NCBI RefSeq assembly: GCF_001611675.1
Contig: NZ_CP014766.1
Location: 3,968,001 to 4,032,000 of the forward strand
Reading direction: 5' to 3'
DNA length: 64,000 nt
Source of the DNA: Pontibacter akesuensis
GTDB lineage: Bacteria; Bacteroidota; Bacteroidia; Cytophagales; Hymenobacteraceae
How positions within the stretch are numbered: the first letter of the stretch is position 1; every line of letters starts with the position of its first letter. Position numbers and translations under genes: made by a program. A model generated the notes under the pieces. That model was not told where the DNA came from, ran no database searches, and worked only from the letters and a program-made list of their open reading frames with translations. Shown in pieces: positions 35,546 to 50,444 of this stretch.

Positions 35546-35836
35546 ATGAAAAAAGGCAAAGCAAAACTTTTGGCCATCGCAGGCACCATAATTTTGGTTT
35601 CTTCCTGTGGAACCCCTTCCGACTTGCGTCCTGAAGACAAGGTTTCGGTGGAGTATGTAGAACCCGGAACACGCAGCACTTATAATATCGGTAAAGTAAA
35701 CGAAGTGCACCCACCCTCGGATGAGGGGGAGGTTATGCCTGACCGTGACTTAGGGGGCAACCACATGGTACAGCCTAATGACAGCATTAAAGAGACAACT
35801 GAAACCAACACAGTGTTAGGTACAACCAAAGAGTAA
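35546..35836 (+). CDS. Small lipoprotein
   Basis: A 96-residue protein with a signal peptide and lipobox ILVSSC. The mature part is hydrophilic (Pro/Glu/Asp/Thr-rich) and looks disordered. I do not recognise a family. The leader contains TAGTAAG (35484-35490) paired with CTTACTA (35503-35509), a possible operator. Confidence 0.7.
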   Translation: MKKGKAKLLAIAGTIILVSSCGTPSDLRPEDKVSVEYVEPGTRSTYNIGKVNEVHPPSDEGEVMPDRDLGGNHMVQPNDSIKETTETNTVLGTTKE

Positions 35837-36322
35837 GCCTTCCTAAGGACCACATGTTGCTGCAAACCATTTAACGACAGGCGCTATTGTGCCAACAAAT
35901 AAGCAGAGTGGTGACTTGAGCCAGCACTTCGTTAGCCGTCTGTGGAGAAAGGGAACGTTGTCTAAAATTCCATAAGTGAAGATTGTAATATGCGGGGAAT
36001 AGGTGTATGTTAACTTAACAACTAATGCTGCCTTGTTGACAGGCGCTGTCCCAAGAGCGGCCATTTTCCCACTACAGGTTTTGAAGGTCATCCCCGGTAT
36101 TGCTTCCGCTTGCTCCTGCTTGTTTTTGCTTGCCTATGCTTGTTATTGCTTGCTCTTGTCCCGGAAAAATGAGGGTTAAATGAGACGAATTGGGTGAGGG
36201 CTTAGCATAAGAGAAATTTCAATTACAGCCTCTAAAAACTAATATGGTACATTATATATAGGTAAAGTAGTCAGGGAATTTGCCTGGCTGCTTACAGCCT
36301 ACATAAAAGACTAACAGGCTTT
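35837..36322. other. Intergenic region at proposed left edge of the element
   Basis: No gene. The block ACAGGCGCT occurs twice (near 35877 and 36041). The 10-bp-period array A1 lies at 36099-36160. An open minus-strand frame at 35843-36091 has no recognisable content. Confidence 0.5.
36099..36160 (-). repeat. 10-bp-period CAAGC array A1
   Basis: GCTTG on the plus strand recurs at 36108, 36118, 36128, 36138 and 36148, an exact 10-bp step. Read on the minus strand it is CAAGC, the same word as in the right-hand arrays. Confidence 0.8.
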
Positions 36323-37420
36323 TTACCTGAGAAATATCTTGAATTTACTTCCTTCCCCTACCTTACTTTCAACTTCAATTTTCCCGTGGTTGCCCTCTAC
36401 TAGTTTAGCAACCAGCCCCAAGCCTACTCCTGTCCCTTCCACTACAGTATCATTGTCCACTCTCTGGTACATTGAGAAAATCCGTTTCTTATCTTCCTCT
36501 TCTATGCCCATGCCATTGTCAGCCACCTCCAGCAGTGTGTACCCTTCGGTCAGAGACGTTTTGATGCTGATTTCAGGCTTTCTTTTTGGGGACTTATACT
36601 TGATGGCGTTTGTAATTAGGTTCTGCAGAATACTGCGGATATGCTTTGTCGGATACCTGACAAAGGGGGCCTCGGCATAGTCTTCATGGAAGACAGCCTG
36701 GGCGGTTTTAATATCATTGCTCAGTAAGAGCTTAATATCATCTACCACATCCTTGAAGGACTGGTAGGTGTAATGCTCACTCTCCTCTTGAGCGGCCCTG
36801 GCCATGTCGGTAATTACGACCTTGAACTTCAGGGCGGATTGGTGCATCAGCTCCACGATCTTTGAGATCCCGTCATCACTTACCTTGTTTTCAAGTTCAC
36901 TCTTCAGCAGCAGGGAGAGTCCCTCTATGTTGTTGATGGGGGCCTTCAGGTCGTGCGAGGCAGTATAAGCGAAGTTGTTGAGATCGGCATTCATCCTCTT
37001 GAAATCTTCTATCTTACTCTGCAACTGGTCATGCAGCTTCTTTTTCTCAGACTGGTCCTGGGTTATCTTCACATAACCTACAAACTTTCCGCTGTCATCT
37101 GTAATCTTAGTCAGCACCACAAACGCCCAGAAAAGCTCCCCGCTTTTGGGCCTTCTCCAGTTCTCCGTCTCATACCGGCCTTTTTCTTTTGCTATTGCTA
37201 TCTCCTTTTCAGGCAAATGTTTATCTCTCAGGAAACTGGGGAAAAGCATGCTGTAATTTTGGCCGATTACTTCTTCTGCTTTGTAGCCTTTCATAAGTTC
37301 ACACCCAGGGTTCCATGTAAGAATTACCCCATCCTTGTCCAACATGTAGATAGCGAAGCCTTTGACTTTGGAAACTACATTGGGAAAATAGGACTCAAGA
37401 GGTTTATCTGCCTTTGCCAT
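36323..37420 (-). CDS. PAS-domain sensor histidine kinase
   Basis: A 365-residue soluble kinase. An N-terminal PAS domain (about 15-125) contains WNPGCELMKGYKAEEVIG and YVKITQDQSEKKK. A short coiled coil leads to the HisKA box ASHDLKAPINNIEGLSLLL (His about 156), then the HATPase_c domain with N, G1 and G2 boxes (NLITNAIKYKS, DNGMGI, GTGVGLGLVAKLVEGNHG). No membrane segment and no receiver gene lies next to it, so it is an orphan kinase. Whether it belongs to the mobile element or to flanking chromosome is uncertain. Confidence 0.93.
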   Translation of the reverse strand: MAKADKPLESYFPNVVSKVKGFAIYMLDKDGVILTWNPGCELMKGYKAEEVIGQNYSMLFPSFLRDKHLPEKEIAIAKEKGRYETENWRRPKSGELFWAFVVLTKITDDSGKFVGYVKITQDQSEKKKLHDQLQSKIEDFKRMNADLNNFAYTASHDLKAPINNIEGLSLLLKSELENKVSDDGISKIVELMHQSALKFKVVITDMARAAQEESEHYTYQSFKDVVDDIKLLLSNDIKTAQAVFHEDYAEAPFVRYPTKHIRSILQNLITNAIKYKSPKRKPEISIKTSLTEGYTLLEVADNGMGIEEEDKKRIFSMYQRVDNDTVVEGTGVGLGLVAKLVEGNHGKIEVESKVGEGSKFKIFLR

Positions 37421-37559
37421 GCCGGTTGAATATTATATAGTGCGTTAATCAGGTGTGCTAATATACTTGCCTTACACAATTAGGTTAGAAGCCCATCGGT
37501 AGACCTTACTGGTGAGCTGTCTTTCTGCCGCCACTTGCTTAGGCGGTCAGGATCATTTC

Positions 37560-37646
37560 CTATAACTCATCGACTACCTCTTTCACTGATCCCCTCACAT
37601 AGGAGAGGTCAATGGCCATCCGCTTGAAGGAGGCATCAAATACACT
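37560..37646 (-). pseudogene. IS3-family orfA fragment
   Basis: The minus strand reads FDASFKRMAIDLSYVRGSV then KEVVDEL and stops. This is the start of the helix-turn-helix of an IS3-type OrfA transposase (usual continuation EVADELGI). The frame runs upstream into array A2, which is not part of any transposase, so only the fragment is real. Confidence 0.6.
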
Positions 37647-37670
37647 TCTGAAACTACCTGGCAGTGCGAT

Positions 37671-37750
37671 CGGTTGCTCCAGGTTGCCCGTGGTTGCTGT
37701 CCGTTGCCCACGGTTGCTCTGCGTTGCTCTCGGTTGCCCTTGGTTGCTCC
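37671..37750 (-). repeat. 10-bp-period GTTGC array A2 (8 units)
   Basis: GTTGC starts at 37673, 37683, 37693, 37703, 37713, 37723, 37733 and 37743, an exact 10-bp step with no slippage. Flanking bases favour GG before and C or T after. On the minus strand the word is GCAAC. Confidence 0.95.
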
Positions 37751-37896
37751 TGTCCCAGTTTTGTGGATGCAAACAGCTGCCCGAAACCGAAAACGGCTGT
37801 CGCACACCTGGTGCTGCCCCTTTCCGAAGCTGTTTCAAACGCTTTCCACCCGAAAGCAACAGAATGTTGCTACCTGTTGCCTGGAAAAAGGCCTAT

Positions 37897-37936
37897 ATAA
37901 AAGAAGGGCTCCCCGCCTGGAGAGCCCTTCTTTTAT
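37897..37936. terminator. Bidirectional terminator-like hairpin
   Basis: Perfect 15-bp stem ATAAAAGAAGGGCTC / GAGCCCTTCTTTTAT with a 10-base loop and A/T runs on both sides. No intact gene ends here now, so it may be left over from a lost gene. Confidence 0.75.
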
Positions 37937-38274
37937 GATAAGTACTTAAATACTTTTCAACTTTTAGCCGTGTCTTTGTACGCTCGCGCTTTCGCCGTGG
38001 TTGCGCAAACAGCGGAAAAACAGTGCAATTTTCCGGACCCGCTCACTCATGCGGGCAAAAAGAAAAGGGCAGCCAGCGGCCGCCCCTTCGTCATGTAATT
38101 CACCTTAACAACTGTGGTCCTATCTTGGCTAAAAGTTGAAAACCACAGCAGCCATACACGCAATCGGCGGTAATGATTCCACGTTTTCCGGAATATTTGT
38201 CGCCTCCGCGGAGAATCATACGCTTTCGCTGGAGGAGTGCAATCCGCTGGCCCCCGGCAGGACTGGGAAGCGGT

Positions 38275-38490
38275 GTTGCTTCCTTGTTGCCAACCGTGTT
38301 GCTAGTGGCAACAAAGCATTGGCAACACCGGATTTTTGCGAGTACACATCTATTCCAAGACACTTAAATACTGCCCTGAAAACCCTTTTGGCGCAGTATA
38401 GCGTGTGAAAGAGGGGAAGCACCCGCATTTTATGCGCGTTGCCGGTCCTGTTGCCATTTTGTTGCTTTCCCGCGTTGCCGCCTGTTGCTA
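38275..38490 (-). repeat. Irregular GTTGC array A7
   Basis: GTTGC starts at 38275, 38286, 38298, then 38438, 38450, 38461, 38474 and 38484, with steps of 10-13 bp. Reverse-orientation GCAAC words near 38308 and 38322 form small inverted pairs with the first group. It is a looser version of the exact arrays. Confidence 0.65.
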
Positions 38491-38595
38491 CTACTCCGCC
38501 TGAGCGAGGTAGCGGTAGCAGGTGGCCCTGCCAATACCGTGGTGCAAACTCACGAAATCCACGCCCTGCCGCTGGAATATATAGACCAGGTCGAT
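38491..38595 (-). pseudogene. C-terminal remnant of a resolvase/invertase
   Basis: The minus strand reads IDLVYIFQRQGVDFVSLHHG then IGRATCYRYLAQAE and stops. This matches the Hin-type helix-turn-helix end of small serine recombinases (IGRATVYRYL). The frame is closed by a stop directly upstream, and the catalytic domain is missing. It abuts the IS3 fragment that follows. Confidence 0.6.
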
Positions 38596-38630
38596 CTAAT
38601 ACTTTAACGCTAGGTCACAAGAGAGAAGAA

Positions 38631-38813
38631 AATTCTAAAAGGAAGCTCAAGCAGATGGCCGTGGATCTCAGCAAGAGCAGGGATCAATTCTTTAAACTGG
38701 GTATACATGCCGAGCTTACGTACCGCTGGCGCTCGGAGCACCTGGAAAAGCCGGAGGGCAGCATAACAGGCCACGGTAAGGTCAGACATATTGTAAACCG
38801 GAGTGCTAGCTAG
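38631..38813 (+). pseudogene. IS3-family orfA fragment
   Basis: RKLKQMAVDLSKSRDQFFKL then GIHAELTYRWRSEHLEKPEG is an IS3 OrfA DNA-binding segment with a few residues deleted between DQ and LGI. It lacks the true start and orfB. It points away from the orfA fragment at 37560, so the two may be ends of a destroyed composite insertion or two independent events. Confidence 0.65.
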
Positions 38814-38879
38814 CAGAAGATAAGTTACCATGATTCATCCTAATTTTTCTATATTGCCTTAGAAAGCAGACACTCCGCA

Positions 38880-41800
38880 ATGCAGCACACAGTACTACGG
38901 CCGAAGCAGGCACTAAACAAGGCATACCTCCGTAACAAGACATCACGCACTGAGATGGAGCAGTTCAAGGAGGCGCTCAGCACCCTGCTCGACAGCATCG
39001 ACTTGACCGAGAGCGAGGAGCACGTAAAGAACCACCTGCGCGACTTCCTGAAAGGCACGTTCTACGGAAAGCACGGCGTGAACACCAAAGGCAAGACGGA
39101 CCTGGTGATACACACCGGCGCCAATACCAAGAGCCCTGCCGGCGTGCTGCTGGAGGTGAAGCGGCCTACTAACAAGGCCGACATGCCTACCCGCGAGAGC
39201 CTGAACTGTAAGGCCATGCACGAGCTGGTGCTGTATTACCTGCGCGAGCGGGTGGAGCACAAGAACAACGACCTCAAGCAGCTCGCCATCACCAGCGTGC
39301 ACGAGTGGTTTGTGTTCGATGCCCTGGAGTTCGACCGCCTGTTTTACCGCAACGGCCAGCTGAGGCGGGATTTCACCGACTGGAGCCAGGGCAAGAAGTC
39401 CGGCAATAGCACCGACTTCTTCTACAAGGAGATAGCCGCGCCTTACATAGCCAAGCTGCAGGAGAGCATCACCTTCACACATTTCAACCTGAAGGATTAC
39501 GAGAAGCCGCTGCGCAACAAGGACCTGAAGGACGACGTGAAGCTGGTGGCGCTGTACAAGCTGCTCTCGCCGGCGCACCTGCTCAAGGAATCCTTCACCA
39601 ACGATGCCAACTCACTGGACCCCGGCTTTTACCTGGAGCTGCTGCACATCATCGGCCTGGAGGAGGTGAAGGAGGGTGGCCGTAAGCTGATCCAGCGCAA
39701 GGCAAAGCCCGACGGCGGCTCACTGCTGGAGGCTGCCTACCAGAAGCTAAAATCCGAGGATTTGATCAGCGGCCTGGATAACCCCTACAGCTACGGCAGC
39801 ACCCGCGAGGAGCAGCTGTTCAGCGTGGCCCTGGAGCTGTGCATCACTTGGATGAACCGCATCCTGTTCCTGAAACTGCTGGAGGCGCAGCTGGCCAGCT
39901 ACCACCACGGCGACAAGGCCTACGTGTTCATGCGCCACGATAACCTGAAGGAGTTTGACGATTTGAACGAGCTGTTCTTCGACGTGCTGGCGGAGCGGCC
40001 CGAGAACCGCAGCGCCAACGTGCGCCACAAGTATAGCCACATCCCGTACCTCAACTCTTCGCTGTTCGAGACCACGGCCCTGGAGAAACGCACGCTGCGT
40101 ATCTCCAACCTGAAGGACAACAGCCGCCTGCCGCTTTACGCCAAGACCGTGCTGCGTGACGTGTCGGGCAAGCCGCTGATCAAAAGCCAGCCCGACATGC
40201 GCACGCTGGAGTACCTGCTGCGCTTTCTGGCCAGCTACGACTTTGGGGCCGAGGGCAAGGAGGAGATACAGGAGGAGAACAAGACGCTGATCACGGCCTC
40301 GGTGCTGGGGCTGATCTTCGAGAAGATAAACGGCTACCGCGACGGCTCCTTCTACACGCCCGGCTTCATCACCATGTACATGAGCCGCGAGGCTATTAGG
40401 CGGGCCGTGGCGCGGCGCTTTGCCGAGAAGTATGGCTGGGGATCTGGTTCGGATAAAAACGGACTCACGTTCGAATCCCTGCAGCTCCACATACACCAGA
40501 ACTACAGCTTAGAAAACATAAGGGAGTACAACCAGCTCATCAACGGCATCCGGGTCTGCGACCCGGCCGTGGGCTCGGGGCACTACCTGGTGAGCGCCCT
40601 GAACGAGCTGATTGTGATAAAGCATGAGCTGAGACTGCTGCTGAGCCGGCAGGGAAAGCCGCTGCACTATGGAGGCATAGAGGTGGCTAACGACGAGCTG
40701 ATCATAACCGACCTGCACGGCGATCCTTTCAGCTACACCGTGACTGACCATGCAGACGGGCACCGCACAGTAAACCCTCAGGTGCAGGAGCTGCAGGAGG
40801 CGCTTTTCCATGAGAAGCAGACCATCATCGAGAACTGCCTGTTCGGCGTGGACATCAACCCGAACTCGGTGAAGATATGCCGCCTGCGCCTCTGGATAGA
40901 GCTGCTCAAGAACGCCTACTACCAGCAGCAGGAAACAGGCAACTACACCCAGCTGCAGACGCTTCCCAACATCGACATTAACATAAAGCAGGGCAATTCG
41001 CTGCTGAGCCGCTACCCGCTCTCGGCCGACCTGCAGGAGGCATTCGGCAAGAAGGGCCACAGCCTGCAAGCCTACCGCGAGGCGGTGCTGAAGTACAAGC
41101 ACACCAACTCCAAAGATGACAAGAAGCGGCTGGTGGCTTTCCTGGACGAGATTAAGCAGGGCTTCAGAACCTCTTTGTCTAACCGCGACCCGCTTCGCAA
41201 GGCTCTGTCCAAGATCAGGGGGGAGCTGGCCATGCTGGACAACAACATCGACCTGTTTGGCAACAAGTTTAAGAAAGAGGAGGACAGGGTTTGGGAGAAA
41301 AAGCGGTTGGTGAAGCTACTGGAGCAGAAGGAAAAAGAGGTGGAGGACATAGAGGCCAACGCCATGTTTCAGAACGCCTTTGAGTGGCGGTTTGAATTCC
41401 CGGAGGTGCTGGACGAGCAGGGTAGCTTTACTGGTTTTGATGTGGTGATCGGAAACCCGCCGTACATACGGCAGGAGGAGCTAGGCAGCTTTAAAGTATA
41501 CTTGAAGAAGGCCTATAGCACCTTTGCTGGCACCGCCGACCTGTATGTTTACTTTGTGGAGCGTGGCATAGAGCTGCTGCGCGAGGGCGGGCAGTTCAGC
41601 TACATTTTGCCTAACAAATGGATGCGCGCCGGTTACGGACAGTCGCTGCGAACCTGGCTCCAAAACCATACGTTGGTGCAGCTGCTGGACTTCGGCGATC
41701 TGCCTGTGTTTGAGGAAGCCACCACATACCCGCTCATACTTGCCGTGGCAAAGTATAAACCTGAGGCTGGCTATACTTTTGAGGCCGCCACTATAAACAC

Positions 41801-42785
41801 CCTAAAGTATGAGCAGGGGATGGAGGCATACGTGCAGCAACACAAGTATGAAGTGCAGGCCGACTTGCTGCCCGACTCCGGTTGGACACTCTCCGATAGC
41901 ACCGCACAGCAACTGCTGGAGAAGCTGAAAAACACCGGCACGCCGCTTGGCGAGTATGTGGAGGGTAAAATTTACCGTGGCGTTCTGACTGGCCTTAATG
42001 AGGCTTTTGTAATTGATGAAGCCACCAAAGATCGCCTCATTGCTGAAGACTCGCGAAGTGCAGAAATCATAAAACCATTTCTGGCTGGCCGTGATGTGAA
42101 ACGGTATCAGCCACCTAAGTCGGATAAACATCTTATACTTTTTCCTGCTGGATTCACGAAAAGTAAGATTGGTAACGCGAATGAACAAAAGGCTTGGGAG
42201 TGGATACAGCAGAACTATACTGCTGTAGCTCGATTTTTGGCCCCCTTTGCTGATAAGGCAAGAAAGCGTGCTGATAAAGGTAATTACTGGTGGGAATTGA
42301 GAGCCTGTGCATACTATGACGAGTTTGAGAAGCCAAAGATTCTTTTTCAGGAAATTGCCACTTTCAATGCTTTTGCTTGGGATGTATCAGGCGCTTATTC
42401 CAACAACAAGACTTTTATAGTTCCGGATGCTGATTTATACTTGCTTGGTCTGCTTAACTCTAAAGTAGTTTGGTACTTCATAAACCAGATTGCTTCAAAA
42501 CTTCAGGGTGGAGCTTTAGCCATGCAAACACCTTATACTTTCCAAATTCCTATAGTTTCTGATGACGAAGAATCGAAAGTAAGTATAACGCAGCTGGTGG
42601 AGCAGATACTAAGTATAAAACAAGCCGATGCCGCTGCCGACACATCAAAACTGGAGGCTAAAATAGATGTGCTGGTGTACCGCCTCTACCACCTCACCTA
42701 TGAGGAGGTGCTATTGGTAGACCCCGGCTTTGCCCTCAGCCGTGACCAATATGAGTTTGCTCCGGCCTTTGTGGCCAAAGTTTAG
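38880..42785 (+). CDS. Eco57I-like type IIG restriction-modification protein
   Basis: A 1301-residue fused nuclease and DNA methyltransferase. The N-terminal part has a PD-(D/E)xK-like nuclease pattern (TDLVIHTG about residue 75 and LLEVKRP about 92). The methyltransferase has motif I DPAVGSGHYLVSALN (about 560) and motif IV NPPYIRQEE (about 859), as in N6-adenine enzymes. The last ~350 residues should be the target-recognition region. From about 41.98 kb the DNA becomes visibly more AT-rich than the first part, which suggests exchange of the recognition module. I keep the start at 38880 because LNKAYxxxxxxxxxxEQFK matches the family N-terminus. It needs no separate subunits. Confidence 0.88.
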   Translation: MQHTVLRPKQALNKAYLRNKTSRTEMEQFKEALSTLLDSIDLTESEEHVKNHLRDFLKGTFYGKHGVNTKGKTDLVIHTGANTKSPAGVLLEVKRPTNKADMPTRESLNCKAMHELVLYYLRERVEHKNNDLKQLAITSVHEWFVFDALEFDRLFYRNGQLRRDFTDWSQGKKSGNSTDFFYKEIAAPYIAKLQESITFTHFNLKDYEKPLRNKDLKDDVKLVALYKLLSPAHLLKESFTNDANSLDPGFYLELLHIIGLEEVKEGGRKLIQRKAKPDGGSLLEAAYQKLKSEDLISGLDNPYSYGSTREEQLFSVALELCITWMNRILFLKLLEAQLASYHHGDKAYVFMRHDNLKEFDDLNELFFDVLAERPENRSANVRHKYSHIPYLNSSLFETTALEKRTLRISNLKDNSRLPLYAKTVLRDVSGKPLIKSQPDMRTLEYLLRFLASYDFGAEGKEEIQEENKTLITASVLGLIFEKINGYRDGSFYTPGFITMYMSREAIRRAVARRFAEKYGWGSGSDKNGLTFESLQLHIHQNYSLENIREYNQLINGIRVCDPAVGSGHYLVSALNELIVIKHELRLLLSRQGKPLHYGGIEVANDELIITDLHGDPFSYTVTDHADGHRTVNPQVQELQEALFHEKQTIIENCLFGVDINPNSVKICRLRLWIELLKNAYYQQQETGNYTQLQTLPNIDINIKQGNSLLSRYPLSADLQEAFGKKGHSLQAYREAVLKYKHTNSKDDKKRLVAFLDEIKQGFRTSLSNRDPLRKALSKIRGELAMLDNNIDLFGNKFKKEEDRVWEKKRLVKLLEQKEKEVEDIEANAMFQNAFEWRFEFPEVLDEQGSFTGFDVVIGNPPYIRQEELGSFKVYLKKAYSTFAGTADLYVYFVERGIELLREGGQFSYILPNKWMRAGYGQSLRTWLQNHTLVQLLDFGDLPVFEEATTYPLILAVAKYKPEAGYTFEAATINTLKYEQGMEAYVQQHKYEVQADLLPDSGWTLSDSTAQQLLEKLKNTGTPLGEYVEGKIYRGVLTGLNEAFVIDEATKDRLIAEDSRSAEIIKPFLAGRDVKRYQPPKSDKHLILFPAGFTKSKIGNANEQKAWEWIQQNYTAVARFLAPFADKARKRADKGNYWWELRACAYYDEFEKPKILFQEIATFNAFAWDVSGAYSNNKTFIVPDADLYLLGLLNSKVVWYFINQIASKLQGGALAMQTPYTFQIPIVSDDEESKVSITQLVEQILSIKQADAAADTSKLEAKIDVLVYRLYHLTYEEVLLVDPGFALSRDQYEFAPAFVAKV

Positions 42786-42973
42786 GTAACATGGCTGTGA
42801 AAAATCTATAAAATACCCAAGTAGCAGGGGCAATATGTCAGGGCAAGCTGCACCATTACATAGAAAGGGCTAAGAGCGCCGGCAAATATGCATGGCCGAA
42901 GGGTTTTGAGGAGGCCCTGTTCTTTACAGTTTTAAGCAATACACCACAAAAAAATATACAAGAACACCGTTAT
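42786..42973 (+). other. Short intergenic stretch with coding-like remnant
   Basis: A plus-strand open stretch from 42812 with no start codon reads CQGKLHHYIERAKSAGKYAW then PKGFEEALFF. It looks like protein sequence but I cannot name it. It runs on into the antisense of the next gene. Confidence 0.25.
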
Positions 42974-43984
42974 TTAAACGGTGGCCAGCAGGAAGTCGGC
43001 TATATCCAAACCCTCCTGCCTTTGCCGCTCGTTGGCAATCCGCTCCAAAAGGTCAGAAACCGTTAAGGAAACGATATTTTGTAGCTCCTGCGCTTTCTGG
43101 CGCCACTTCTCGTAACCTCCTAAATCCGGGAAGAGCGTGACGTCCCTGCCCTGGAGCACACTGCACCGCTCCGCCGTCAACATAAAGAGGCCGCCCAACG
43201 CCAGCCATATGTACCTTGGCAGCATCAATGAGCAGATAATGGCCGTCTTCTCGCTCTCCACCACGGCCACCGGCTTTTTGGGGAACTGCCGCAGCAGGTG
43301 CTCTCCGAACAGGCACTGCCTGAGGCAGTAATCCTCCTGCTTAAGATGCCGGTGCGCCCAATCGATGTGGTCATACGGCTTCTTGACCCTTTTGCCCGTA
43401 ATCTTGTTGTAGAGCATGATCTTTCCCGTCCTGATTTTTCCCTGTTGGTCGATCTGCCAAAAAACCGTGGCCCCGGGCCACCTTTTGGAGGTGCCGATAT
43501 GGTATAGCGAGACAAGTTTTTCGGCTGTTTCTACTCCTAGCTTGCTTATGAGATACTGCACAAAGTTATTCTGCCCGTAGTGCCTGCGGCTTTCCTGCAG
43601 CACCTCCAACGGCACGCAGGAGGGCTGTTGCGCTTTGTTGCTTTGCGCAGACAGCGAAGCAACAAAGTGTTGCCCGTTGTTGCCACTAGATGGTTTCTGG
43701 TGTTGCCGACCTCTGACAGCCATGTTGCTTTTTGGCAACCGGTCTGTTGCCCCGGTGTTGCCGCTCTCGGCAAGCCACGGGTTATCCTCATAGAACTGCC
43801 TCGGCGAGTAGCTATAGCCGCACTTGCTCTGCCTGTTGCAGCTCCCCACCGTCTCGTGCACGTAATTGCCCGTGTCGGTGTCTATGTAGCGCGTGAACTC
43901 CCTTTTCTTTCCGCAGCCGGGGCAAGCGTGGCGTGTGTTCCGGCCGCTGCCGTAGGGCTCAAGGATGTATCTGTACCGGCTCAT
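42974..43984 (-). CDS. DUF6371 / toprim-like primase protein
   Basis: A 336-residue protein. The N-terminus has a CHC2-like zinc ribbon: HACPGCGKKREFTRYIDT and GSCNRQSKCGYSY. The C-terminal half has a toprim-like core (KKPVAVVESEKTAIICSL, then LFPDLGGYEKWRQKA). This is the layout of DUF6371 proteins, which I read as primase-related. The middle (about 75-120) is encoded by array A6 and is Gln/Asn/Ser-rich. I took the ATG at 43984; the longer frame would translate the 27-bp inverted repeat. It follows the DUF3987 gene, and the two probably act in element replication. Confidence 0.75.
   Translation of the reverse strand: MSRYRYILEPYGSGRNTRHACPGCGKKREFTRYIDTDTGNYVHETVGSCNRQSKCGYSYSPRQFYEDNPWLAESGNTGATDRLPKSNMAVRGRQHQKPSSGNNGQHFVASLSAQSNKAQQPSCVPLEVLQESRRHYGQNNFVQYLISKLGVETAEKLVSLYHIGTSKRWPGATVFWQIDQQGKIRTGKIMLYNKITGKRVKKPYDHIDWAHRHLKQEDYCLRQCLFGEHLLRQFPKKPVAVVESEKTAIICSLMLPRYIWLALGGLFMLTAERCSVLQGRDVTLFPDLGGYEKWRQKAQELQNIVSLTVSDLLERIANERQRQEGLDIADFLLATV
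43627..43761 (-). repeat. GTTGC array A6 inside the primase-like gene
   Basis: GTTGC starts at 43627, 43637, 43669, 43679, 43702, 43724, 43746 and 43757. Steps are 10, 32, 10, 23, 22, 22 and 11, all near multiples of 10.5. In the coding (minus) sense the word is GCAAC. One opposite word lies at 43734. Confidence 0.75.
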
Positions 43985-44009
43985 TGCTTGTTTTCCTCTG
44001 CTTTGCCCG

Positions 44010-44071
44010 TTGCATTTCTTGCACTTTGTGCACTTTACTCCTGCAAAGTGCACAAAGTGCAAGAAATGCAA
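44010..44071. repeat. Perfect 27-bp inverted repeat
   Basis: Arms 44010-44036 and 44045-44071 are exact complements around an 8-base spacer. Each arm contains the words TGCACTTTGTGCACTTT, so the arm itself has an internal repeat of GTGCAC-type half sites. It fills the gap between the DUF3987 stop (44077) and the DUF6371 start (43984). There is no T-run after it. Candidate roles are an operator, an RNA hairpin controlling the second gene, or a replication/transfer origin structure. Confidence 0.95.
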
Positions 44072-44076
44072 TGTTG

Positions 44077-45516
44077 TTAAAGCTGCTTTTCATACTGCCC
44101 GTGGCTTACCTTGGTGAAGAGCGTCTTCTCCGACAGGAACTTCTTGAACGTCCGTTCAGGCATTCCGTGCCGCTCGGCCGCAAGCAGTCCCTCGGCCGTG
44201 GTGAAGTGCTGCGGCAGCTGCGCGTAAAGGTTTCGCTGCCCCTGGCTGTAGCGGTCGAGCGGGTCCTCGTTGCGCACGATGCGCTGCACCACCCTTGCCG
44301 TGGCGCGGAAGTACTCGGCCAGCAGTATGGCCCCCTCCACGGCCTTCAGCTCTATCGCCTCCTTCCCGTCCTCGTTGCAGGCCCAGGCCATCAGCTGCAA
44401 CACCAGCGCGAAGCGGATGGCGTAGGACTCCAGCTTCGTGTAGACGCCCTGCAGTGCCTCGCTCTCGGCTGCGTTGCAGAGATCCGTGTTCACCGCCTGC
44501 CACTCCTGCAGCCTTGCCCAGGCGGCGGGGGAGAAGCGCAGCTGGCGCGGCACGGGCGTATCCCACTCGTCCTTCTCCAGCCTCAGGTCCGTCAGAAACG
44601 AGATGCACTTTTCCCAGTTGTAGGCGTGGGCCGCGTCGAGGGTGAGATCGCTCCACCTTTCCTTGCGTACCTGCTGGGGCATGGCGAAGAGGAACCTGTC
44701 TATAAAGCCGTTGTCGGACTTGCCGTCCCTGGCCAGCTGCAGCAGTACCCCATTCTGGATCGTTCCGACTATGGGGATGAAGGGCCGCTTGATGCGCAGC
44801 GAGATGCGCGAGAGGCGGTCCACGCTCACGGTCTTGCCGCTCCAGGCGCTGAGCCAGAACTCCACGTCGCCGCCACTTGTGTAGCGGTTGAGGTTCTTGA
44901 TGAAGCCGGCCAGCTCGTCGGCCACCACGCACACGCCCCTGGGGTTGTGGCTGTGCGCCTCGGTCAAGGCCTCCTGGGTGAAGTCCGACACCAGGTTCTT
45001 GCTTAGCACCGGCTTCTCGATTTCCTCCGCCGCAGGATCACGCTGCTTGCGGCTCATGCCCTGCAGCATGTCGTACTCCTTCCGCTCCTGGGCGTAGCGG
45101 TGGTAGGACTCGTCGTCGCGCTTTGCCAGGGGTGCGAAGGCAAAGGTGAGCGGATGGCTCTTGTTCGAGCCGGGCGGGGCCACGAGCGCAGCGTACAGCA
45201 CGGCGCCCTCCTGCCATCCCGGCATCACATAGGCCGTGTGCGTGTTGCCGATGGCCGTGGCCGCCGCAGTGAGCATGGAGGTGGCGATGAAGTCCAGCGG
45301 GAAGCGCAGGCTCTCGTTGGTGGCGCGGATGATCCGCTGCACGGCCTGCGGGAAGGCCTGCACCGGGAACGGGTTTGCCGCCGGGCTCTTAGCTTTTGAT
45401 GCCGCGGGTGCGGGCTCCTTTCGCAGCTCCTCTAGGATAAGGTCCGCCTGCGTGAAATCGGGCGTCAGCGTGTCCGGCTGCGCCTGTGTGTCTTGTTGTG
45501 GTTGCTCCATTTGCAT
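44077..45516 (-). CDS. DUF3987 protein (primase-helicase-like)
   Basis: A 479-residue protein of the DUF3987 family, common on Bacteroidota mobile elements and prophages. A P-loop-like segment APPGSNKSHPL (about residue 113) is followed by a Walker-B-like GVCVVADELAGFIKNL and a sensor-like PFIPIVGTIQNGVLLQL. The N-terminal ~45 residues are Gln/Pro/Ala-rich and probably disordered. The pattern suggests a RecA/AAA-type ATPase used in replication. It is transcribed leftward ahead of the DUF6371 gene. Confidence 0.8.
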   Translation of the reverse strand: MQMEQPQQDTQAQPDTLTPDFTQADLILEELRKEPAPAASKAKSPAANPFPVQAFPQAVQRIIRATNESLRFPLDFIATSMLTAAATAIGNTHTAYVMPGWQEGAVLYAALVAPPGSNKSHPLTFAFAPLAKRDDESYHRYAQERKEYDMLQGMSRKQRDPAAEEIEKPVLSKNLVSDFTQEALTEAHSHNPRGVCVVADELAGFIKNLNRYTSGGDVEFWLSAWSGKTVSVDRLSRISLRIKRPFIPIVGTIQNGVLLQLARDGKSDNGFIDRFLFAMPQQVRKERWSDLTLDAAHAYNWEKCISFLTDLRLEKDEWDTPVPRQLRFSPAAWARLQEWQAVNTDLCNAAESEALQGVYTKLESYAIRFALVLQLMAWACNEDGKEAIELKAVEGAILLAEYFRATARVVQRIVRNEDPLDRYSQGQRNLYAQLPQHFTTAEGLLAAERHGMPERTFKKFLSEKTLFTKVSHGQYEKQL

Positions 45517-45576
45517 CGGTGTATTTGGGTGAACGATCGATGCAAAACAAGCGGGTTTTAGTCGGAAAAGCGTGCC

Positions 45577-45605
45577 GGTAACGGCATTGGTAATGACTTT
45601 GGTAA
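45577..45605. promoter_or_regulatory. Three direct repeats of GGTAA, 12-bp spacing
   Basis: GGTAA occurs at 45577, 45589 and 45601 (steps of exactly 12), just upstream of the DUF3987 start and inside the gap after the unknown 314-aa gene. The same word forms the arms of the operator-like TTACC-TTTG-GGTAA at 46714-46727. It could be a binding-site cluster for the element's own regulator. Confidence 0.55.
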
Positions 45606-45627
45606 TGAATAGGGGAGTGTAACCGCC

Positions 45628-46572
45628 TTATTTCCTTTTACTTGAGCCGGGCCTTTGTTTGATGCCGTCGAACTTGGGCCTGTAGGCGGTGGTGTACACG
45701 TCCGGGTACACAAAGCCGCGACTGGGCTTGACCAGCTGGCGAATCGTGTCACCTTTGGTATAGGCGGCGCTGATTGTCCTGTGCTCGATTTCCTTGATCC
45801 ATCCCTTTCGCTTCAGCTCGATGTGCATTTCCGCCAGCTCCTTCTGTGTTCCGAGCCACTCAAATTTGTTTAACCCCAGTGCCGTCACGTCGAGCGGTAC
45901 GTGCAAGCTCTCCGTTTCGCGCGTGTCCTCCTTCTCCCGTTGCGCAGTTTCGTTCAAAGCCGACTGGAAAAGCTCTGGGAATAGCCTGATGCCGATGGCC
46001 TCCACCGCATTGAAGTCCCGCAGCCCCGGCTCAACGTTGTCTATCTTCGCTGCCTCGAGCTGTATCTGCTCTTGTGTGAAGGCGGGCTCCAGCCTCCTCA
46101 CCTGGCTTGTCAGGGTGTGGTACACTATAAGGAATTTGGCAACGGCGCTGTCACCTTCGGCAGTGCCTGCTGCTGTTTGGCTTTCCAGGCGCTGCACCCA
46201 GCGAAGCCAGTAGCGGAAGGCTTCCTCGCTCACGCGCTCCAGGTTTGCGATAGTGCCGTCTGCGTGGAGGGCGGCAAGCTTGAGCATCCCTGACAGGCTT
46301 ACCTCCCTTGCCTTGGCGATGCCCGCCGAGGGCGCAGATCTTCTGTTAATAGAGAAAGCGCCCTCGAATACGGTGATGATCTCTTGCAGCCGAGGCGTTT
46401 TCTCAAAAGACTTCCTGAGCGCGCCAATGGACAGGAGCTGCAGGTAAAAGGCCAGGCCTTTGTGCCCGACCTCTTCCAGGCTTGTTCTCACTTGCTGCAG
46501 CGCGAAGCTTTCGTACCGCTTCTGAAGTGCCCAGAAGCGGCTGTCACTGTATGTCGGTGCTGTGTTGCTCAT
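45628..46572 (-). CDS. Unknown element protein, possible winged-helix end
   Basis: A 314-residue mostly helical protein that I do not recognise. It starts MSNTAPTYSDSRFWALQKRY. The region 225-270 (LGLNKFEWLGTQKELAEMHI, then ELKRKGWI) resembles a small winged-helix or replication-initiator-type DNA-binding segment. The tail is basic (KQRPGSSKRK). It is divergent from the MerR-like gene, and its mRNA leader consists of array A5. Position ahead of the DUF3987/DUF6371 genes suggests a replication or control role (inference). Confidence 0.7.
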   Translation of the reverse strand: MSNTAPTYSDSRFWALQKRYESFALQQVRTSLEEVGHKGLAFYLQLLSIGALRKSFEKTPRLQEIITVFEGAFSINRRSAPSAGIAKAREVSLSGMLKLAALHADGTIANLERVSEEAFRYWLRWVQRLESQTAAGTAEGDSAVAKFLIVYHTLTSQVRRLEPAFTQEQIQLEAAKIDNVEPGLRDFNAVEAIGIRLFPELFQSALNETAQREKEDTRETESLHVPLDVTALGLNKFEWLGTQKELAEMHIELKRKGWIKEIEHRTISAAYTKGDTIRQLVKPSRGFVYPDVYTTAYRPKFDGIKQRPGSSKRK

Positions 46573-46610
46573 TGTTGCTACTTGTTGCTACTTGTTGCTG
46601 TTTGTTGCCA
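46561..46610 (-). repeat. 10-bp-period GTTGC array A5 (5 units) in an mRNA leader
   Basis: GTTGC starts at 46564, 46574, 46584, 46594 and 46604, exactly 10 apart. It spans the start codon (46570-46572) and the whole predicted leader of the 314-aa gene. A further GTTGC lies at 46625. Confidence 0.95.
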
Positions 46611-46616
46611 AATATA
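46609..46616 (-). promoter_or_regulatory. Predicted -7 box for the 314-aa gene
   Basis: On the minus strand TATATTTG fits the Bacteroidota -7 consensus TAnnTTTG. The -33 position reads TTT rather than TTG. Transcription would begin about 46602, so the leader is almost wholly made of GCAAC repeats. Confidence 0.5.
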
Positions 46617-46690
46617 CGGCTTCCGTTGCGGCTAAGGAAACGATGCCCTGGCCCGTCTCTGGCGCTTCGAAAAAAAATTCTAGGGCTGCC

Positions 46691-46727
46691 TTGTTTTACG
46701 GATGTCTATTATATTACCTTTGGGTAA
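46691..46727 (+). promoter_or_regulatory. Bacteroidota promoter with overlapping operator-like palindrome
   Basis: TTG (46691-46693), a 21-base spacer and TACCTTTG (46715-46722) give a good -33/-7 promoter for the MerR-like gene at 46743. TTACC (46714-46718) and GGTAA (46723-46727) flank the -7 box as an inverted repeat, so a bound protein would block the promoter. Autoregulation is likely. Confidence 0.7.
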
Positions 46728-46742
46728 CAAACTAGATAAGCA

Positions 46743-47678
46743 ATGAGCGTTGTAGACACCCTTCTTAAGTTCATCTCGCACCGGGACCTGCTCTGGGGCT
46801 CACAGGGGGATTTCCTGGCTTTCATGGCTCACTACCACAGCCGCCTTTTCACCGTGCGCGACACGCTGGTGACGCCCAAGCGCTTCCACGACTGGCTGCA
46901 CGAGGGCCTGCTGCCGCTGGAAGTGCCCGAGGGGAAAAAGAATATGATGAGCCTGCCCGAGTTCGTCTGGGTGAAGCTCATTGATAAGCTGCGCCAGGTG
47001 GGAACGCCCCTGGATCACATCAGGGAGCTGAAGGGCTTCCTGTTTACAAAGGTGGACCCGCAGCACCTGAGGCAGGCGCTTTCGGAGCAGCAGGGGGCGA
47101 GGGCGGCGATGATGCGCCAGCTCGGCGGCCTAGGCCTCGGTAATGAGGAGCGCGAGGCGGTGGAGGATAGGCTGGAGGAGGGTGACTTCTTCTCCGTGCT
47201 GGAGGGCATCGGGCAGACGGTGCTGGACTCCCTGCTCATACGCCTGCTGCTGACCCCGGACGAGGCGGGCGTGATGCTCATGCCGAGCGGCTACTTCCGC
47301 GTGTGGCTGGAGAGCGCGGGCGAGCCCCGGATGAACCAGACCCATGTGTACCTGTCCATCTCCGAGGAGCTGAGTCTGTTTCGCAGCAACAGCCTGCGGG
47401 CGCAGAGCCCGGGGTCGCTCAACGATGTGTCGGACGAGGAGTGGCAGGTGGTGTGGGCCATCCGCGACAGGCGGGCCCGGGAGGTGACGGTGAGCTTCGT
47501 GGAGAAGGGCGAGCGGCGCCAGATAGACATTACCACCACCACCGACCACGTGTTCGACAAGGAGAAGGACGAGCAGGCCATTCAGCGGATCACGCAGGGC
47601 AAGTACCTGGACGTGCGCATCAAGACGCAGGACGGCAAGACCCTGTTCATCGAGCGCAAGAAGCGAAAGCGGGTGTAG
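46743..47678 (+). CDS. MerR-like helix-turn-helix regulator of the element
   Basis: A 311-residue protein. Residues about 38-105 look like a MerR-type winged helix: LVTPKRFHDWLHEGLLPLEV, then MSLPEFVWVKLIDKLRQVG and TPLDHIRELKGFLF. The C-terminal ~100 residues (VVWAIRDRRAREVTVSFVEK, ending IERKKRKRV) form a basic beta-rich domain I do not recognise. It faces the replication-like genes across a short divergent promoter with an operator-like palindrome. A role as the lysogeny-type switch of the element is inferred. Confidence 0.7.
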   Translation: MSVVDTLLKFISHRDLLWGSQGDFLAFMAHYHSRLFTVRDTLVTPKRFHDWLHEGLLPLEVPEGKKNMMSLPEFVWVKLIDKLRQVGTPLDHIRELKGFLFTKVDPQHLRQALSEQQGARAAMMRQLGGLGLGNEEREAVEDRLEEGDFFSVLEGIGQTVLDSLLIRLLLTPDEAGVMLMPSGYFRVWLESAGEPRMNQTHVYLSISEELSLFRSNSLRAQSPGSLNDVSDEEWQVVWAIRDRRAREVTVSFVEKGERRQIDITTTTDHVFDKEKDEQAIQRITQGKYLDVRIKTQDGKTLFIERKKRKRV

Positions 47679-48014
47679 AAAGCGCGTGAATGAAGCGCTG
47701 GACCACAAAAGCAGCCCAAGAACAAGCAGAAGCAAGCACCGGCAAGCAAAAGCAAGACAAGCCAAGCAAAAGCAATACAAAACAAGCAGGACCAATACAG
47801 AGCAAGCAGAAGCATAAGCACAGCAACCGGAAGCAACCAACAGCAACGCAGAGCAACCAAGAGCAACCGGAAGCAACGCTGGTCAAGCATAAGCAAGACA
47901 AAACAAGCAAAAGCAAGACTGCGTGCCAAGTAAACGGCACTGAAGACCTTAGGCCGATAGAGAGCAGGGCGGCCGTACCGGAAAAACCGGACGGCCGCGC
48001 TAACGGAAGAATCC
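47679..48014 (+). other. Array-filled gap between regulator and recombinase genes
   Basis: Two thirds of this stretch is array A3 (47721-47920). A frame open across it (47690-48106) would give a 138-residue Lys/Gln/Ser-rich chain translated from the repeats; I do not count it as a gene because it has no independent coding signal. Confidence 0.6.
47721..47920 (+). repeat. 10-bp-period GCAAG/GCAAC array A3 (20 units)
   Basis: Twenty units of 10 bp with one single-base phase shift between unit 10 and unit 11. Units 1-10 mostly carry GCAAG, ACAAG or GCAAT, units 11-16 carry GCAAC, and units 17-20 return to the CAAG type. The variable half of each unit differs freely, so only the 5-bp core and its spacing are kept. 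Confidence 0.95.
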
Positions 48015-48335
48015 GTGAACACTTCAACTATAACCAAACTAAAAGAGCATTCAGAGAAAAAGCAGCGCCCGAAGGGGCAGAAAAAGAAAAACAAACCGGC
48101 CGCTAACCCTCAAAAGCCTGGGGAAGCCGATCCGCAGGAGGAGGGCCTGTACGCGCAGGTAAGGCAGGACGAGGCGCTTCGGGCCTACCACACCGCAAGG
48201 CTCCTGGAAACACCCGGCTACGGGCACCTGGGCGAAGGCGGGGCAGGTGAGATGGTCGAGCAGATGCTCCGGCTCTCCACGCTCCTCTACGAGATGCTCC
48301 TGGAGGAAAGGAAGGAGGCAATCCATGAACGGTGA
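48015..48335 (+). CDS. Small protein coupled to the recombinase
   Basis: A 106-residue protein from a GTG start. The first 45 residues are Lys/Pro-rich. The second half is helical (EEGLYAQVRQDEALRAYHTA, then GEMVEQMLRLSTLLYEMLLE). Its last codons overlap the start of the recombinase gene (ATG at 48325, stop at 48333-48335), so the two are translationally coupled. It could be a recombination directionality factor or accessory protein, but nothing in the sequence proves this. Confidence 0.6.
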   Translation: MNTSTITKLKEHSEKKQRPKGQKKKNKPAANPQKPGEADPQEEGLYAQVRQDEALRAYHTARLLETPGYGHLGEGGAGEMVEQMLRLSTLLYEMLLEERKEAIHER

Positions 48336-50298
48336 AAGCGGGAAAAGGCAGCGGGGCGGCAAGCAGGCATCAATAGTCAGGAAAAGCAACCGTGGGCAAC
48401 CAACAGCAACCGGGAGCAACCAAGAGCAACAACAAGCAACGCAGGACAAGCAAAAGCAAGACAAAACAAGCAAAAGCAAGACAAAACAAGCAGGAGCAAT
48501 ACAGGTCAAGCAGGAGCAACGCACAGCAACCGAGGGCAACCATGAGCAACGCAGAGCAACCGGGAGCAACAAGAAGACGAAAAACGGCAACAAAACAGCA
48601 ACAATGGGCAACAGCAAAGCAACAGGCAGGACGATGGCAAATAAGCAAAAGGCAACAAGCGGCAACACGCAGGCGGCAACAAAAGGCAACACGGACCTAA
48701 GCGTATTCGCCCGGCCGCAGCTGGCAGGCAAGAAGAAAAGCAAAGCGGCCGTAAGGGGAAAGGTGGCCGTGATCTACACCCGCGTCTCCACCAAGGAGCA
48801 GGCCGAGACGAACCAGAGCCTGGAGACGCAGCTGGAGCGCTGCCGCGGTTATGCCCAGCGCCACGGCTATGAAGTCGTGAACGAGTTCGGCGGCACCTAC
48901 GAGAGCGCCAAGAACGATGAGCGCAAGCACTTCCAGCTGATGCTTGACTTCGTGAAGAAGAGCCGCCACAAGGTCGGCCACATCATCGTCTACTCCCACG
49001 ACCGCTTCTCGCGCTCGGGCTCCAACGCCATCTACATCGCCGACCAGCTCGCGCAGCTGGGCATCTCGGTGGTGGCCGTCACCCAGCCGGTGGACACGAT
49101 GACCGCCTCGGGCAAGCTGCAGCAGGGCATCCAGTTCCTCTTCTCCCAGTTCGACAACGACCAGCGGCGCGAGAAGTGCGTGACGGGCATGGAGGCCAAG
49201 GTGCGCAAGGGCTACCTGATGGGCAAGGCACCCATGGGCTACGACCAGCTGCGGGTGAACGGAGAGCAGGTGATAAAGCCGAACAAAGACGGGAAGCTCA
49301 TCCGCCTGGCCTTCCAGCTCAAGGCCGAGCAGGGGCTAAGTAACACCGACATCATCAAGCGGCTGAAGGCGCAGGGCCTCTCGCTCTACAACCAGACGCT
49401 CACCAAGATCTTCAAGAACCCGTTCTACTGCGGCCTGATCACGCATGGCTTGCTGGACGAGGGCGAGGTGATCGTGGGAAGGCACGAGCCGCTTATATCG
49501 CGCGACGTTTTCCTAAGGGTGAACGGCCTGCAGGCGCAGAACGCCCACGGCTACACCCAGGTGAAGGAGGACGAGCAGCTGCCACTAAGACATCACGTCA
49601 AGTGCGGCAGCTGCCAAAAGCCGCTCACGGGCTACGAGATGAAGAAGAAGGGCATCCACTACTACAAGTGCAACACCAGGGGCTGCTGCCTCAACAGAAA
49701 CGCCGGAAAGATGCACGAGCTGTACGGTGATCTGCTCAAAGAATACCAGATAGACCCCATGCTTTTGCCGCAGGTGCAGGAGATGATGTCGCAGGTGTTC
49801 AAGAAGCTGGGCCAGGACCATGAGCAGCAGGAAAAAAGACTGAAGCTGCAGCTATCGGAGTTGGAAAAGAAAAAGGATACGCTCGAGCGACGCTACGCCT
49901 ACGGCGAGATCAACGGGGAAATATTCTCAAAATTCAGCGGTGAGCTGAAAGGGGAGATGGGGGAAATAGAGGTGAACATGGAAAAACTCTCCGGCCCCTT
50001 ATCGAACCACAAAACGCTGCTGGGAAAAGGGCTTAAAATGATGCTAAGTCTCTCATCCACATGGGCTAAGGCTGAAGTGTCGCAAAGGAAGAGGCTGCAG
50101 GCGTTGGTGTTCCCGGACGGGGTGGAATATGAGCGCGAAAAGCAGGCTTATCGAACCACCCGCGTCAACTCCTTTTTCGGCCTTGCCGCGGAGATTTCAC
50201 AGGAAATGGGGCAAAAAGAAAGAGGGAAAAGCGATCCTGAAAATCACTTTTCCCTCCTGGTAGCCCGTAGGGGAATCGAACCCCTGTTACTAGAATGA
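48325..50298 (+). CDS. Large serine recombinase (integrase)
   Basis: A 657-residue large serine recombinase. The catalytic domain starts at about residue 148 (VAVIYTRVSTKEQ, nucleophile Ser155), unusually late. Then come a recombinase domain (about 290-400), a zinc ribbon (VKCGSCQKPLTG and CNTRGCC), a coiled coil (about 490-560) and a C-terminal tail. The ~110 residues before the catalytic domain are encoded by array A4. The last residues (LLVARRGIEPLLLE) are simply the antisense of the tRNA-Glu gene. I took the ATG at 48325, coupled to the small ORF; the frame is open 26 codons further. Confidence 0.93.
   Translation: MNGESGKRQRGGKQASIVRKSNRGQPTATGSNQEQQQATQDKQKQDKTSKSKTKQAGAIQVKQEQRTATEGNHEQRRATGSNKKTKNGNKTATMGNSKATGRTMANKQKATSGNTQAATKGNTDLSVFARPQLAGKKKSKAAVRGKVAVIYTRVSTKEQAETNQSLETQLERCRGYAQRHGYEVVNEFGGTYESAKNDERKHFQLMLDFVKKSRHKVGHIIVYSHDRFSRSGSNAIYIADQLAQLGISVVAVTQPVDTMTASGKLQQGIQFLFSQFDNDQRREKCVTGMEAKVRKGYLMGKAPMGYDQLRVNGEQVIKPNKDGKLIRLAFQLKAEQGLSNTDIIKRLKAQGLSLYNQTLTKIFKNPFYCGLITHGLLDEGEVIVGRHEPLISRDVFLRVNGLQAQNAHGYTQVKEDEQLPLRHHVKCGSCQKPLTGYEMKKKGIHYYKCNTRGCCLNRNAGKMHELYGDLLKEYQIDPMLLPQVQEMMSQVFKKLGQDHEQQEKRLKLQLSELEKKKDTLERRYAYGEINGEIFSKFSGELKGEMGEIEVNMEKLSGPLSNHKTLLGKGLKMMLSLSSTWAKAEVSQRKRLQALVFPDGVEYEREKQAYRTTRVNSFFGLAAEISQEMGQKERGKSDPENHFSLLVARRGIEPLLLE
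48381..48690 (+). repeat. 10-bp-period GCAAC/ACAAG array A4 (19 exact units plus tail)
   Basis: From 48381 to 48570 there are 19 consecutive 10-bp units with the core in the last five positions: six GCAAC, then a mix of ACAAG, GCAAG, GCAAT and TCAAG, then six GCAAC. A looser tail follows, with GCAAC at 48587, 48598, 48608, 48619, 48652, 48662, 48676 and 48686. The whole array is within the coding sequence of the recombinase. Confidence 0.97.
50224..50254 (-). terminator. Terminator of tRNA-Glu
   Basis: GGGAAAAG (50224-50231) pairs with CTTTTCCC (50247-50254), followed on the minus strand by a T-rich run. It lies four bases after the tRNA CCA end and inside the last codons of the recombinase frame. 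Confidence 0.75.
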
Positions 50299-50332
50299 AA
50301 ATCTAGCGTCCTAACCCCTAGACGAACGGGCC
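50258..50332 (-). tRNA. tRNA-Glu (TTC)
   Basis: The minus strand folds as a full cloverleaf. The acceptor stem GGCCCGT pairs with ACGGGCT (first pair G-U), the anticodon stem is CTAGA/TCTAG with loop TTTTCAT (anticodon TTC), and the T arm is GGGGTTCGATTCCCC. The discriminator is A and CCA is encoded (50258-50260). The serine recombinase ends inside it on the opposite strand, which marks it as the likely integration site. Confidence 0.95.
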
Positions 50333-50351
50333 GTTCTGTCTGATTGTGGTG

Positions 50352-50382
50352 CAAATATAGAGGGGGCATTTTACTTGTGCAA
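50352..50382 (-). promoter_or_regulatory. Bacteroidota promoter of tRNA-Glu
   Basis: Minus strand: TTG (50380-50382), spacer of 20, then TATATTTG (50352-50359), a perfect match to the TTG/TAnnTTTG pattern. The tRNA begins 20 bases downstream. So the tRNA keeps its own promoter and the insertion lies on its 3' side. Confidence 0.85.
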
Positions 50383-50390
50383 CAGCGCAG

Positions 50391-50444
50391 GTAAAAAAAA
50401 TATGGCTGTAGCTTAAAACGGCTGATTTACAGCCGCATAATTTT
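50391..50444 (-). terminator. Terminator of the transglutaminase-like gene
   Basis: GGCTGTA (50404-50410) pairs with TACAGCC (50428-50434), extended by A- and T-runs on the two sides. It follows the stop of the minus-strand gene directly. Confidence 0.7.

What the first reader, a model, noticed from the sequence alone, without database searches (positions are those of the whole stretch)
36099..48690. A family of phased 10-bp GCAAC/ACAAG arrays confined to one element
A five-base core (GCAAC, with ACAAG/GCAAG variants) recurs with a near-exact 10-bp step: 8 of 8 units at 37671, 5 of 5 at 46561, 20 units with one 1-bp slip at 47721, and 19 of 19 at 48381. A shorter CAAGC array at 36099 has 5 steps of 10, and looser arrays lie at 38275-38490 and 43627-43761. 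The other five bases vary freely, so this is not a simple microsatellite. A 10-bp step puts each core on nearly the same face of the helix, as expected for cooperative protein binding or bending. Ten is not a multiple of three, so protein coding cannot explain it. I noticed no comparable array elsewhere in the window.
Basis: seen in the sequence. Interest (0 to 1): 0.92.

Follow-up and report, generated by a model that had tools for sequence, protein, structure and literature searches.

The report
Helix-phased repeats around serine recombinases
A mobile DNA island carries many copies of a five-letter motif repeated almost exactly once per turn of the double helix, related islands carry the same pattern with somewhat different letters, and the arrays sit next to DNA-cutting recombinases, so they are probably landing strips for a still unidentified DNA-binding protein that controls the island.

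Summary
GCAAC/GTTGC cores recur at 10 bp far beyond chance (pairs at 10 bp: 18 and 15; shuffle means 0.04 and 0.02). In the 4.83-Mb genome every four-unit array at exact 10-bp steps lies in this island. One further short array and some 3- to 5-unit CAAGC arrays lie elsewhere, next to resolvase-type sites.

The island sits at the 3' end of tRNA-Glu, beside its own large serine recombinase. Nine of about 35 related recombinase loci carry arrays. They lie in unlinked, weakly constrained places: intergenic gaps, a 5' leader, and linkers inside two unrelated replication genes. Core letters differ between islands (GCAAC, CAAAC, CAAYG), but spacing is 10 or 11 bp, mean 10.4, which is one helical turn. 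A small serine resolvase lies near 6 of 15 other array loci (0 of 19 random loci); the window holds a wreck of it.

Best explanation: binding tracks for an oligomerising DNA-binding protein, perhaps the island's MerR-like protein, that builds nucleoprotein complexes controlling the recombinase module. No binding was tested. Intrinsic curvature is not elevated. The closest known analogue I found is StbA on the 11-bp stbDR repeats of plasmid R388.

The parts
36097..36158 (-). 10-bp phased CAAGC array (CTTG on + strand), directly abutting a resolvase-type dimer site
   Evidence: 5/5 CTTG at 10 bp; related copies on the plasmid and at C1:3,895,216
36157..36187 (.). Resolvase-type site TGTCCCGGAAAA-ATGAGGG-TTAAATGAGACG (inverted half-sites)
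   Evidence: the same type of site lies next to arrays in L190 and L259
36323..37420 (-). PAS-domain histidine kinase between two arrays; membership in the island uncertain
   Evidence: Pfam
37665..37752 (-). 10-bp phased GCAAC array, 8 of 8 units, ending in CTGTCCCAG
   Evidence: inverted copy of part of 48491-48570 (78% over 80 nt)
38275..38490 (-). Looser GCAAC repeats, mixed orientation
38494..38595 (-). Remnant of a small serine resolvase (MKIGYARVSTQDQ type) with an internal deletion
   Evidence: DNA matches to the C-terminal end of the resolvase genes in L259, L262, L263, L269, L270
38880..42785 (+). Cargo: Eco57I-like type IIG restriction-modification enzyme
   Evidence: Pfam
42974..44071 (-). 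DUF6371 protein with zinc ribbon (replication module)
   Evidence: Pfam
43627..43761 (-). Loose CAAC repeats inside the linker of the DUF6371 gene; the same linker is phased at 10-12 bp in L175, L177 and L205
44077..45516 (-). DUF3987 helicase/primase-like protein
   Evidence: Pfam and PHROGs
45628..46572 (-). Unknown 314-aa protein (U314)
   Evidence: No Pfam or PHROG match; AF2 model unusable
46561..46629 (-). 10-bp phased GCAAC array over the 5' leader and start codon of U314
   Evidence: the homologous leader of L175 and L205 also carries cores
46743..47678 (+). MerR-like protein U311, candidate array reader (weak evidence)
   Evidence: MerR_1 E=0.012, below cutoff; arrays in 8/8 loci of this U311 subclass versus 1/15 others, with looser array criteria for L174 and L205
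47717..47919 (+). Phased CAAGC/GCAAC array, 19 units with one 1-bp slip, between U311 and the small ORF
   Evidence: arrays in the same gap in L171, L174, L175, L177, L208
48015..48335 (+). Conserved small protein (106 aa) upstream of the recombinase
   Evidence: 45-76% identical homologues in related islands; no Pfam match
48385..48623 (+). Phased GCAAC/CAAGC array (19 exact units, 23 in all) in the 5' leader of the recombinase gene
   Evidence: same position in L170, L171, L172, L205, L208
48325..50298 (+). Large serine recombinase (start 48325, or 48634 as in relatives); its stop lies inside tRNA-Glu
   Evidence: Pfam Resolvase and Recombinase, phrog_95 integrase
50258..50332 (-). tRNA-Glu(TTC), probable attachment site; right end of the island

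Best explanation
The arrays are multi-site DNA binding tracks of a mobile-element family that inserts at tRNA-Glu with a large serine recombinase. SHOWN: one core per helical turn, core letters that tend to be island-specific, and placement at unlinked, weakly constrained positions around the recombinase and replication genes. INFERRED: a sequence-specific protein that oligomerises along one face of the helix binds them and joins separate arrays into a nucleoprotein complex. This complex would regulate recombinase expression and set the conditions for integration or excision.
For: Helical spacing: 10 bp x115 and 11 bp x60, mean 10.42, across nine islands. Arrays recur at homologous positions with different sequence: recombinase leader, U311-small-ORF gap, U314 leader, DUF6371 linker. 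In L172 the same CAAYG core appears in the recombinase leader and in the linker of an unrelated replication gene. Cores are more alike within than between islands (permutation p=0.019). No array of any core was found in 27 further recombinase loci. A small serine resolvase is near 6/15 other array loci versus 0/19 random loci, p=0.004. Res-like dimer sites lie within 300 bp of 3/28 arrays versus 0.15% of background windows. Array presence follows the U311 subclass, 8/8 versus 1/15. Inverted array pairs exist (L264).
Against: No protein has been shown to bind. No gene other than U311, the small ORF and the recombinase is common to all array-bearing islands, and those three also occur where arrays are absent. 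L170 has a long array with a divergent U311. U311 is only weakly MerR-like and its model is poor. Several array loci (L191, L254, L260, L264, L265, L267, L268, L271, L273) have no recombinase within reach. The U311 counts are not phylogenetically independent, and two of the nine islands (L174, L205) pass only looser criteria.
Confidence: 0.42

Rival explanations
1. Replication iterons or a centromere-like track: the island's replication protein or a partition-type protein binds the arrays to start replication or segregate the excised circle.
For: Arrays lie in and around the replication genes DUF6371, DUF3987 and U314. Phased direct repeats of about 11 bp are used this way on plasmid R388 (StbA, PMC3098194).
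Against: Arrays persist across at least three unrelated replication modules. They are scattered over many places, some inside the recombinase leader, and also sit beside stand-alone small resolvases. No ParA-like gene was found among the genes examined.
Confidence: 0.2
2. RNA-level element: CAA-rich sense-strand leaders and linkers are bound as mRNA by a translational regulator, or simply keep the leader unstructured.
For: In nearly all islands the CAA strand is the sense strand, and arrays cover 5' leaders and start codons (U314, recombinase).
Against: RNA gives no reason for a 10.4-nt repeat across several cores. Arrays in opposite orientation lie 164 bp apart in one gap (L264). Some intergenic arrays have no downstream start. 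In coding regions the sense bias may simply reflect hydrophilic linkers.
Confidence: 0.12
3. Selfish dispersed minisatellite: the arrays expand and copy themselves around resolvase-site repeats and islands without binding anything.
For: Segments of arrays within this genome resemble each other, for example 48451-48499 and 36110-36158 at 84%. Short arrays ride on a dispersed repeat family. BrickBuilt of Porphyromonas gingivalis is a minisatellite inside a miniature transposable element (PMC4596501).
Against: Spacers diverge while cores and register stay, in islands whose cores differ. Arrays within coding linkers seem to arise by substitution, not copying, since spacing varies between 10 and 12. 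Slippage would not favour the helical repeat.
Confidence: 0.15
4. Intrinsically curved DNA acting without a specific protein.
For: Helical phasing is the usual signature of curved DNA (general knowledge); one array, L205_6371, reached the 94th genome percentile of predicted curvature.
Against: Predicted curvature of seven arrays ranged from the 31st to the 94th genome percentile and was not consistently above shuffles. The conserved five-base core is more than bending needs.
Confidence: 0.05

Closest known systems
StbA with stbDR repeats of plasmid R388
   Same: Direct repeats of a 9-bp TTGCATCAT motif spaced by 2 bp (11-bp step) in sets of five, with further copies at other promoters of the same element; bound by an element-encoded protein that controls maintenance and transfer (PMC3098194).
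   Different: Here the element integrates, cores vary between relatives, units reach 19-23, arrays also lie inside coding linkers, and no StbA homologue was identified.
Accessory/regulatory DNA of serine resolvases (Tn3-type res, PMC9943657 and PMC2428073, listed)
   Same: Serine recombinases whose sites are flanked by regulatory DNA; several arrays here abut inverted half-sites of resolvase type.
   Different: Known accessory subsites are recombinase dimer sites or single bends, not long one-per-turn short-core arrays (general knowledge); arrays here also accompany a large serine recombinase.
Phage phi29 protein p6
   Same: A genome-organising protein that wraps phage DNA around a multimeric scaffold and acts in replication and transcription control (PMC10899789, abstract).
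   Different: From general knowledge p6 reads bendability, not a conserved core; no p6 homologue was sought or found here.
BrickBuilt minisatellite-MITE of Porphyromonas gingivalis
   Same: Tandem array in a dispersed intergenic repeat of a Bacteroidota genome (PMC4596501).
   Different: 23-nt unit without variable spacers, and not described as tied to recombinases in the abstract.

Membership tests
Large-serine-recombinase integrative element at tRNA-Glu | Large serine recombinase next to the attachment site | tested here: met
   Resolvase + Recombinase domains and phrog_95; recombinase stop lies in tRNA-Glu, and tRNA-Glu follows the recombinase in most homologous loci tested
Large-serine-recombinase integrative element at tRNA-Glu | Defined left end and empty site | tested here: inconclusive
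   DNA beyond the tRNA is not syntenic among relatives and no tRNA fragment is repeated at the left
StbA/stbDR-type system | Helically spaced direct repeats at several places of one element | tested here: met
StbA/stbDR-type system | StbA homologue encoded by the element | tested here: inconclusive
   No Pfam match for U314 or the small ORF and only a weak MerR_1 match for U311; StbA itself was not compared
StbA/stbDR-type system | Specific binding of the protein to the repeats | not testable with these tools
   Needs a binding assay
Replication iterons | Repeats tied to one cognate initiator | tested here: not met
   Arrays occur with at least three unrelated replication modules
Curved-DNA element | Elevated predicted curvature | tested here: not met
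   Bolshoy wedge model, seven arrays
Simple microsatellite/minisatellite | Near-identical tandem units | tested here: not met
   Tandem Repeats Finder gives 65-88% matches at period 10; cores are kept and spacers vary
Known structured RNA | Rfam match | tested here: not met
   Only the tRNA matched in 35000-50500

The most novel reading that the evidence does not exclude
A previously undescribed DNA-organising code of mobile elements: a family of proteins reads one short core per helical turn, each element having its own core, through arrays that are laid even inside protein-coding linkers, and this gives serine recombinases of two subfamilies an element-specific synaptic or regulatory scaffold.
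Probability: 0.25. Interest if true: 0.85.

Novelty: new variant of a known kind. Interest (0 to 1): 0.62.

Why it matters
How large serine integrases are controlled, apart from directionality factors, is poorly known, and these enzymes are widely used tools. Arrays that keep helical register across several core sequences, and that are written into the linkers of unrelated genes, point to a strong and untested constraint on whole-element DNA architecture. The islands give ready-made pairs (with and without arrays, different cores) to test it.

Tried and rejected
Viral contigs held no relative of U311, and plasmids held no relative of the large recombinase at E<=1e-40. Structure models of U311 and U314 had mean pLDDT 45 and 35 and were not used. 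The reversed sequence proved a poor control because CAA and AAC mirror each other, so dinucleotide shuffles and unrelated loci were used. A clean left end was not found. Adhaeribacter and Hymenobacter plasmid relatives of the small resolvase have no arrays beside them, so the link with that resolvase is not obligatory. Small-resolvase genes of the window's own genome are only 30-35% identical to the array-associated type. Paper searches found no description of such arrays in these bacteria.

Full report
OBSERVATION. Exact 10-bp runs are GTTGC 8/8 at 37673-37743, GTTGC 5/5 at 46564-46604, CAA 9/9 and 10/10 at 47723-47803 and 47824-47914 (one slip), CAA 19/19 at 48387-48567 and CTTG 5/5 at 36109-36149. 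In 36000-48750 there are 18 and 15 GCAAC and GTTGC pairs at 10 bp, against shuffle means of 0.036 and 0.024; in 500 shuffles no GCAA chain exceeded four. A four-core pattern hits the 4.83-Mb genome 16 times, always here, and the reversed pattern never. In 396 kb sampled from 20 places in the same chromosome no core of any sequence forms a six-unit 10/11-bp chain.

SURROUNDINGS. The island ends at tRNA-Glu (50258-50332). It carries a large serine recombinase whose stop codon lies in the tRNA, a small conserved ORF, a weakly MerR-like protein (U311), an unknown protein (U314), DUF3987 and DUF6371 replication-type proteins, and a type IIG restriction-modification cargo gene. Homologous recombinases in the same taxonomic family are mostly followed by tRNA-Glu as well. 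The left end could not be fixed, because DNA beyond the tRNA is not syntenic in relatives.

RELATED ISLANDS. I fetched about 35 recombinase loci. By periodicity scan and by eye, nine including the window have phased CAA arrays. With a strict any-core criterion seven pass (the window; L170, L171, L172, L175, L177 and L208); L174 and L205 pass only the looser test. Twenty-seven recombinase loci have none. Arrays recur at homologous positions: the recombinase leader, the gap between U311 and the small ORF, the leader of U314, and the linker of DUF6371. In L172, which has a different replication gene, the linker of that gene carries the array instead. Pooled spacing is 10 bp (115) and 11 bp (60), mean 10.42 over 9-12 bp. 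Regions were selected for having arrays, so the existence of a peak is not independent evidence here; the 10:11 mixture, which averages to the helical repeat, is informative. Core letters differ between islands and are more alike within an island (p=0.019).

SECOND SETTING. The same GCAAC phasing appears in other loci of the family. In six of fifteen loci a small serine resolvase lies within about 1.3 kb, versus none of 19 random loci. Inverted half-sites TGTCCCGGAAAA...TTTTGAGACG lie within 300 bp of 3 of 28 arrays, versus 0.15% of background windows. In the window, the 36099 array abuts such a site (36157-36187), and a resolvase remnant with an internal deletion lies at 38494-38595. Short versions of the 36099 array recur on the plasmid and elsewhere in the chromosome. 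Relatives of this resolvase on Adhaeribacter plasmids lack arrays, so the link is frequent, not strict.

MECHANISM. Coding cannot explain the step, because spacing of 10, 11 or 12 is kept in reading frames and in gaps alike. Intrinsic curvature is not elevated. RNA-level action is less likely because inverted arrays share a gap (L264) and because the register matches the DNA helix. Replication iterons are less likely because arrays accompany at least three unrelated replication modules. A protein that binds one core per turn and oligomerises remains the best reading. U311 is a candidate: 8/8 loci of its subclass have arrays versus 1/15 others, by the looser array criterion and without correction for relatedness. 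None of this is shown by experiment.

KNOWN SYSTEMS. The nearest analogue found is StbA of R388, which binds sets of five 9-bp TTGCATCAT repeats spaced by 2 bp and has further copies at other promoters (PMC3098194). The present arrays work like that in layout, but no StbA homologue was identified, cores vary between elements, and arrays extend into coding linkers. I therefore call it a new variant of a known kind, and do not file it under any family.

Noticed in passing
window 14688-14867 and 19802-20286: Dispersed intergenic repeats (86% identical over 181 bp) with inverted half-sites such as GTCTCATTAATCAAACC...TTGATTAATGAGA; copies also in L254, L255 and the 116-kb plasmid. Similar half-sites lie upstream of small resolvases on Adhaeribacter plasmids.
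   Followed up: partly
L262:9380-9560: A second core, AGCATG, is phased with alternating 11- and 10-bp steps (21-bp period) directly before a GCAAC array.
   Followed up: no
window 46707-46732: Palindrome TTACC-CAAA-GGTAA between U314 and U311; similar in L177 and near U311 in L171; possible operator of the MerR-like protein.
   Followed up: no
window 47933-48038: About 105 bp upstream of the small ORF is conserved at 75-80% in L174, L175, L177, L205 and L208; possible attP or leader.
   Followed up: no
window 44010-44071: Perfect 27-bp inverted repeat with 8-bp loop at the start of the DUF6371 gene.
   Followed up: no
L265:2744-4075: In another genome an AAA_25-type gene has GCAAC cores phased across its 5' coding end, with GTTGCAAC palindromes.
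   Followed up: no
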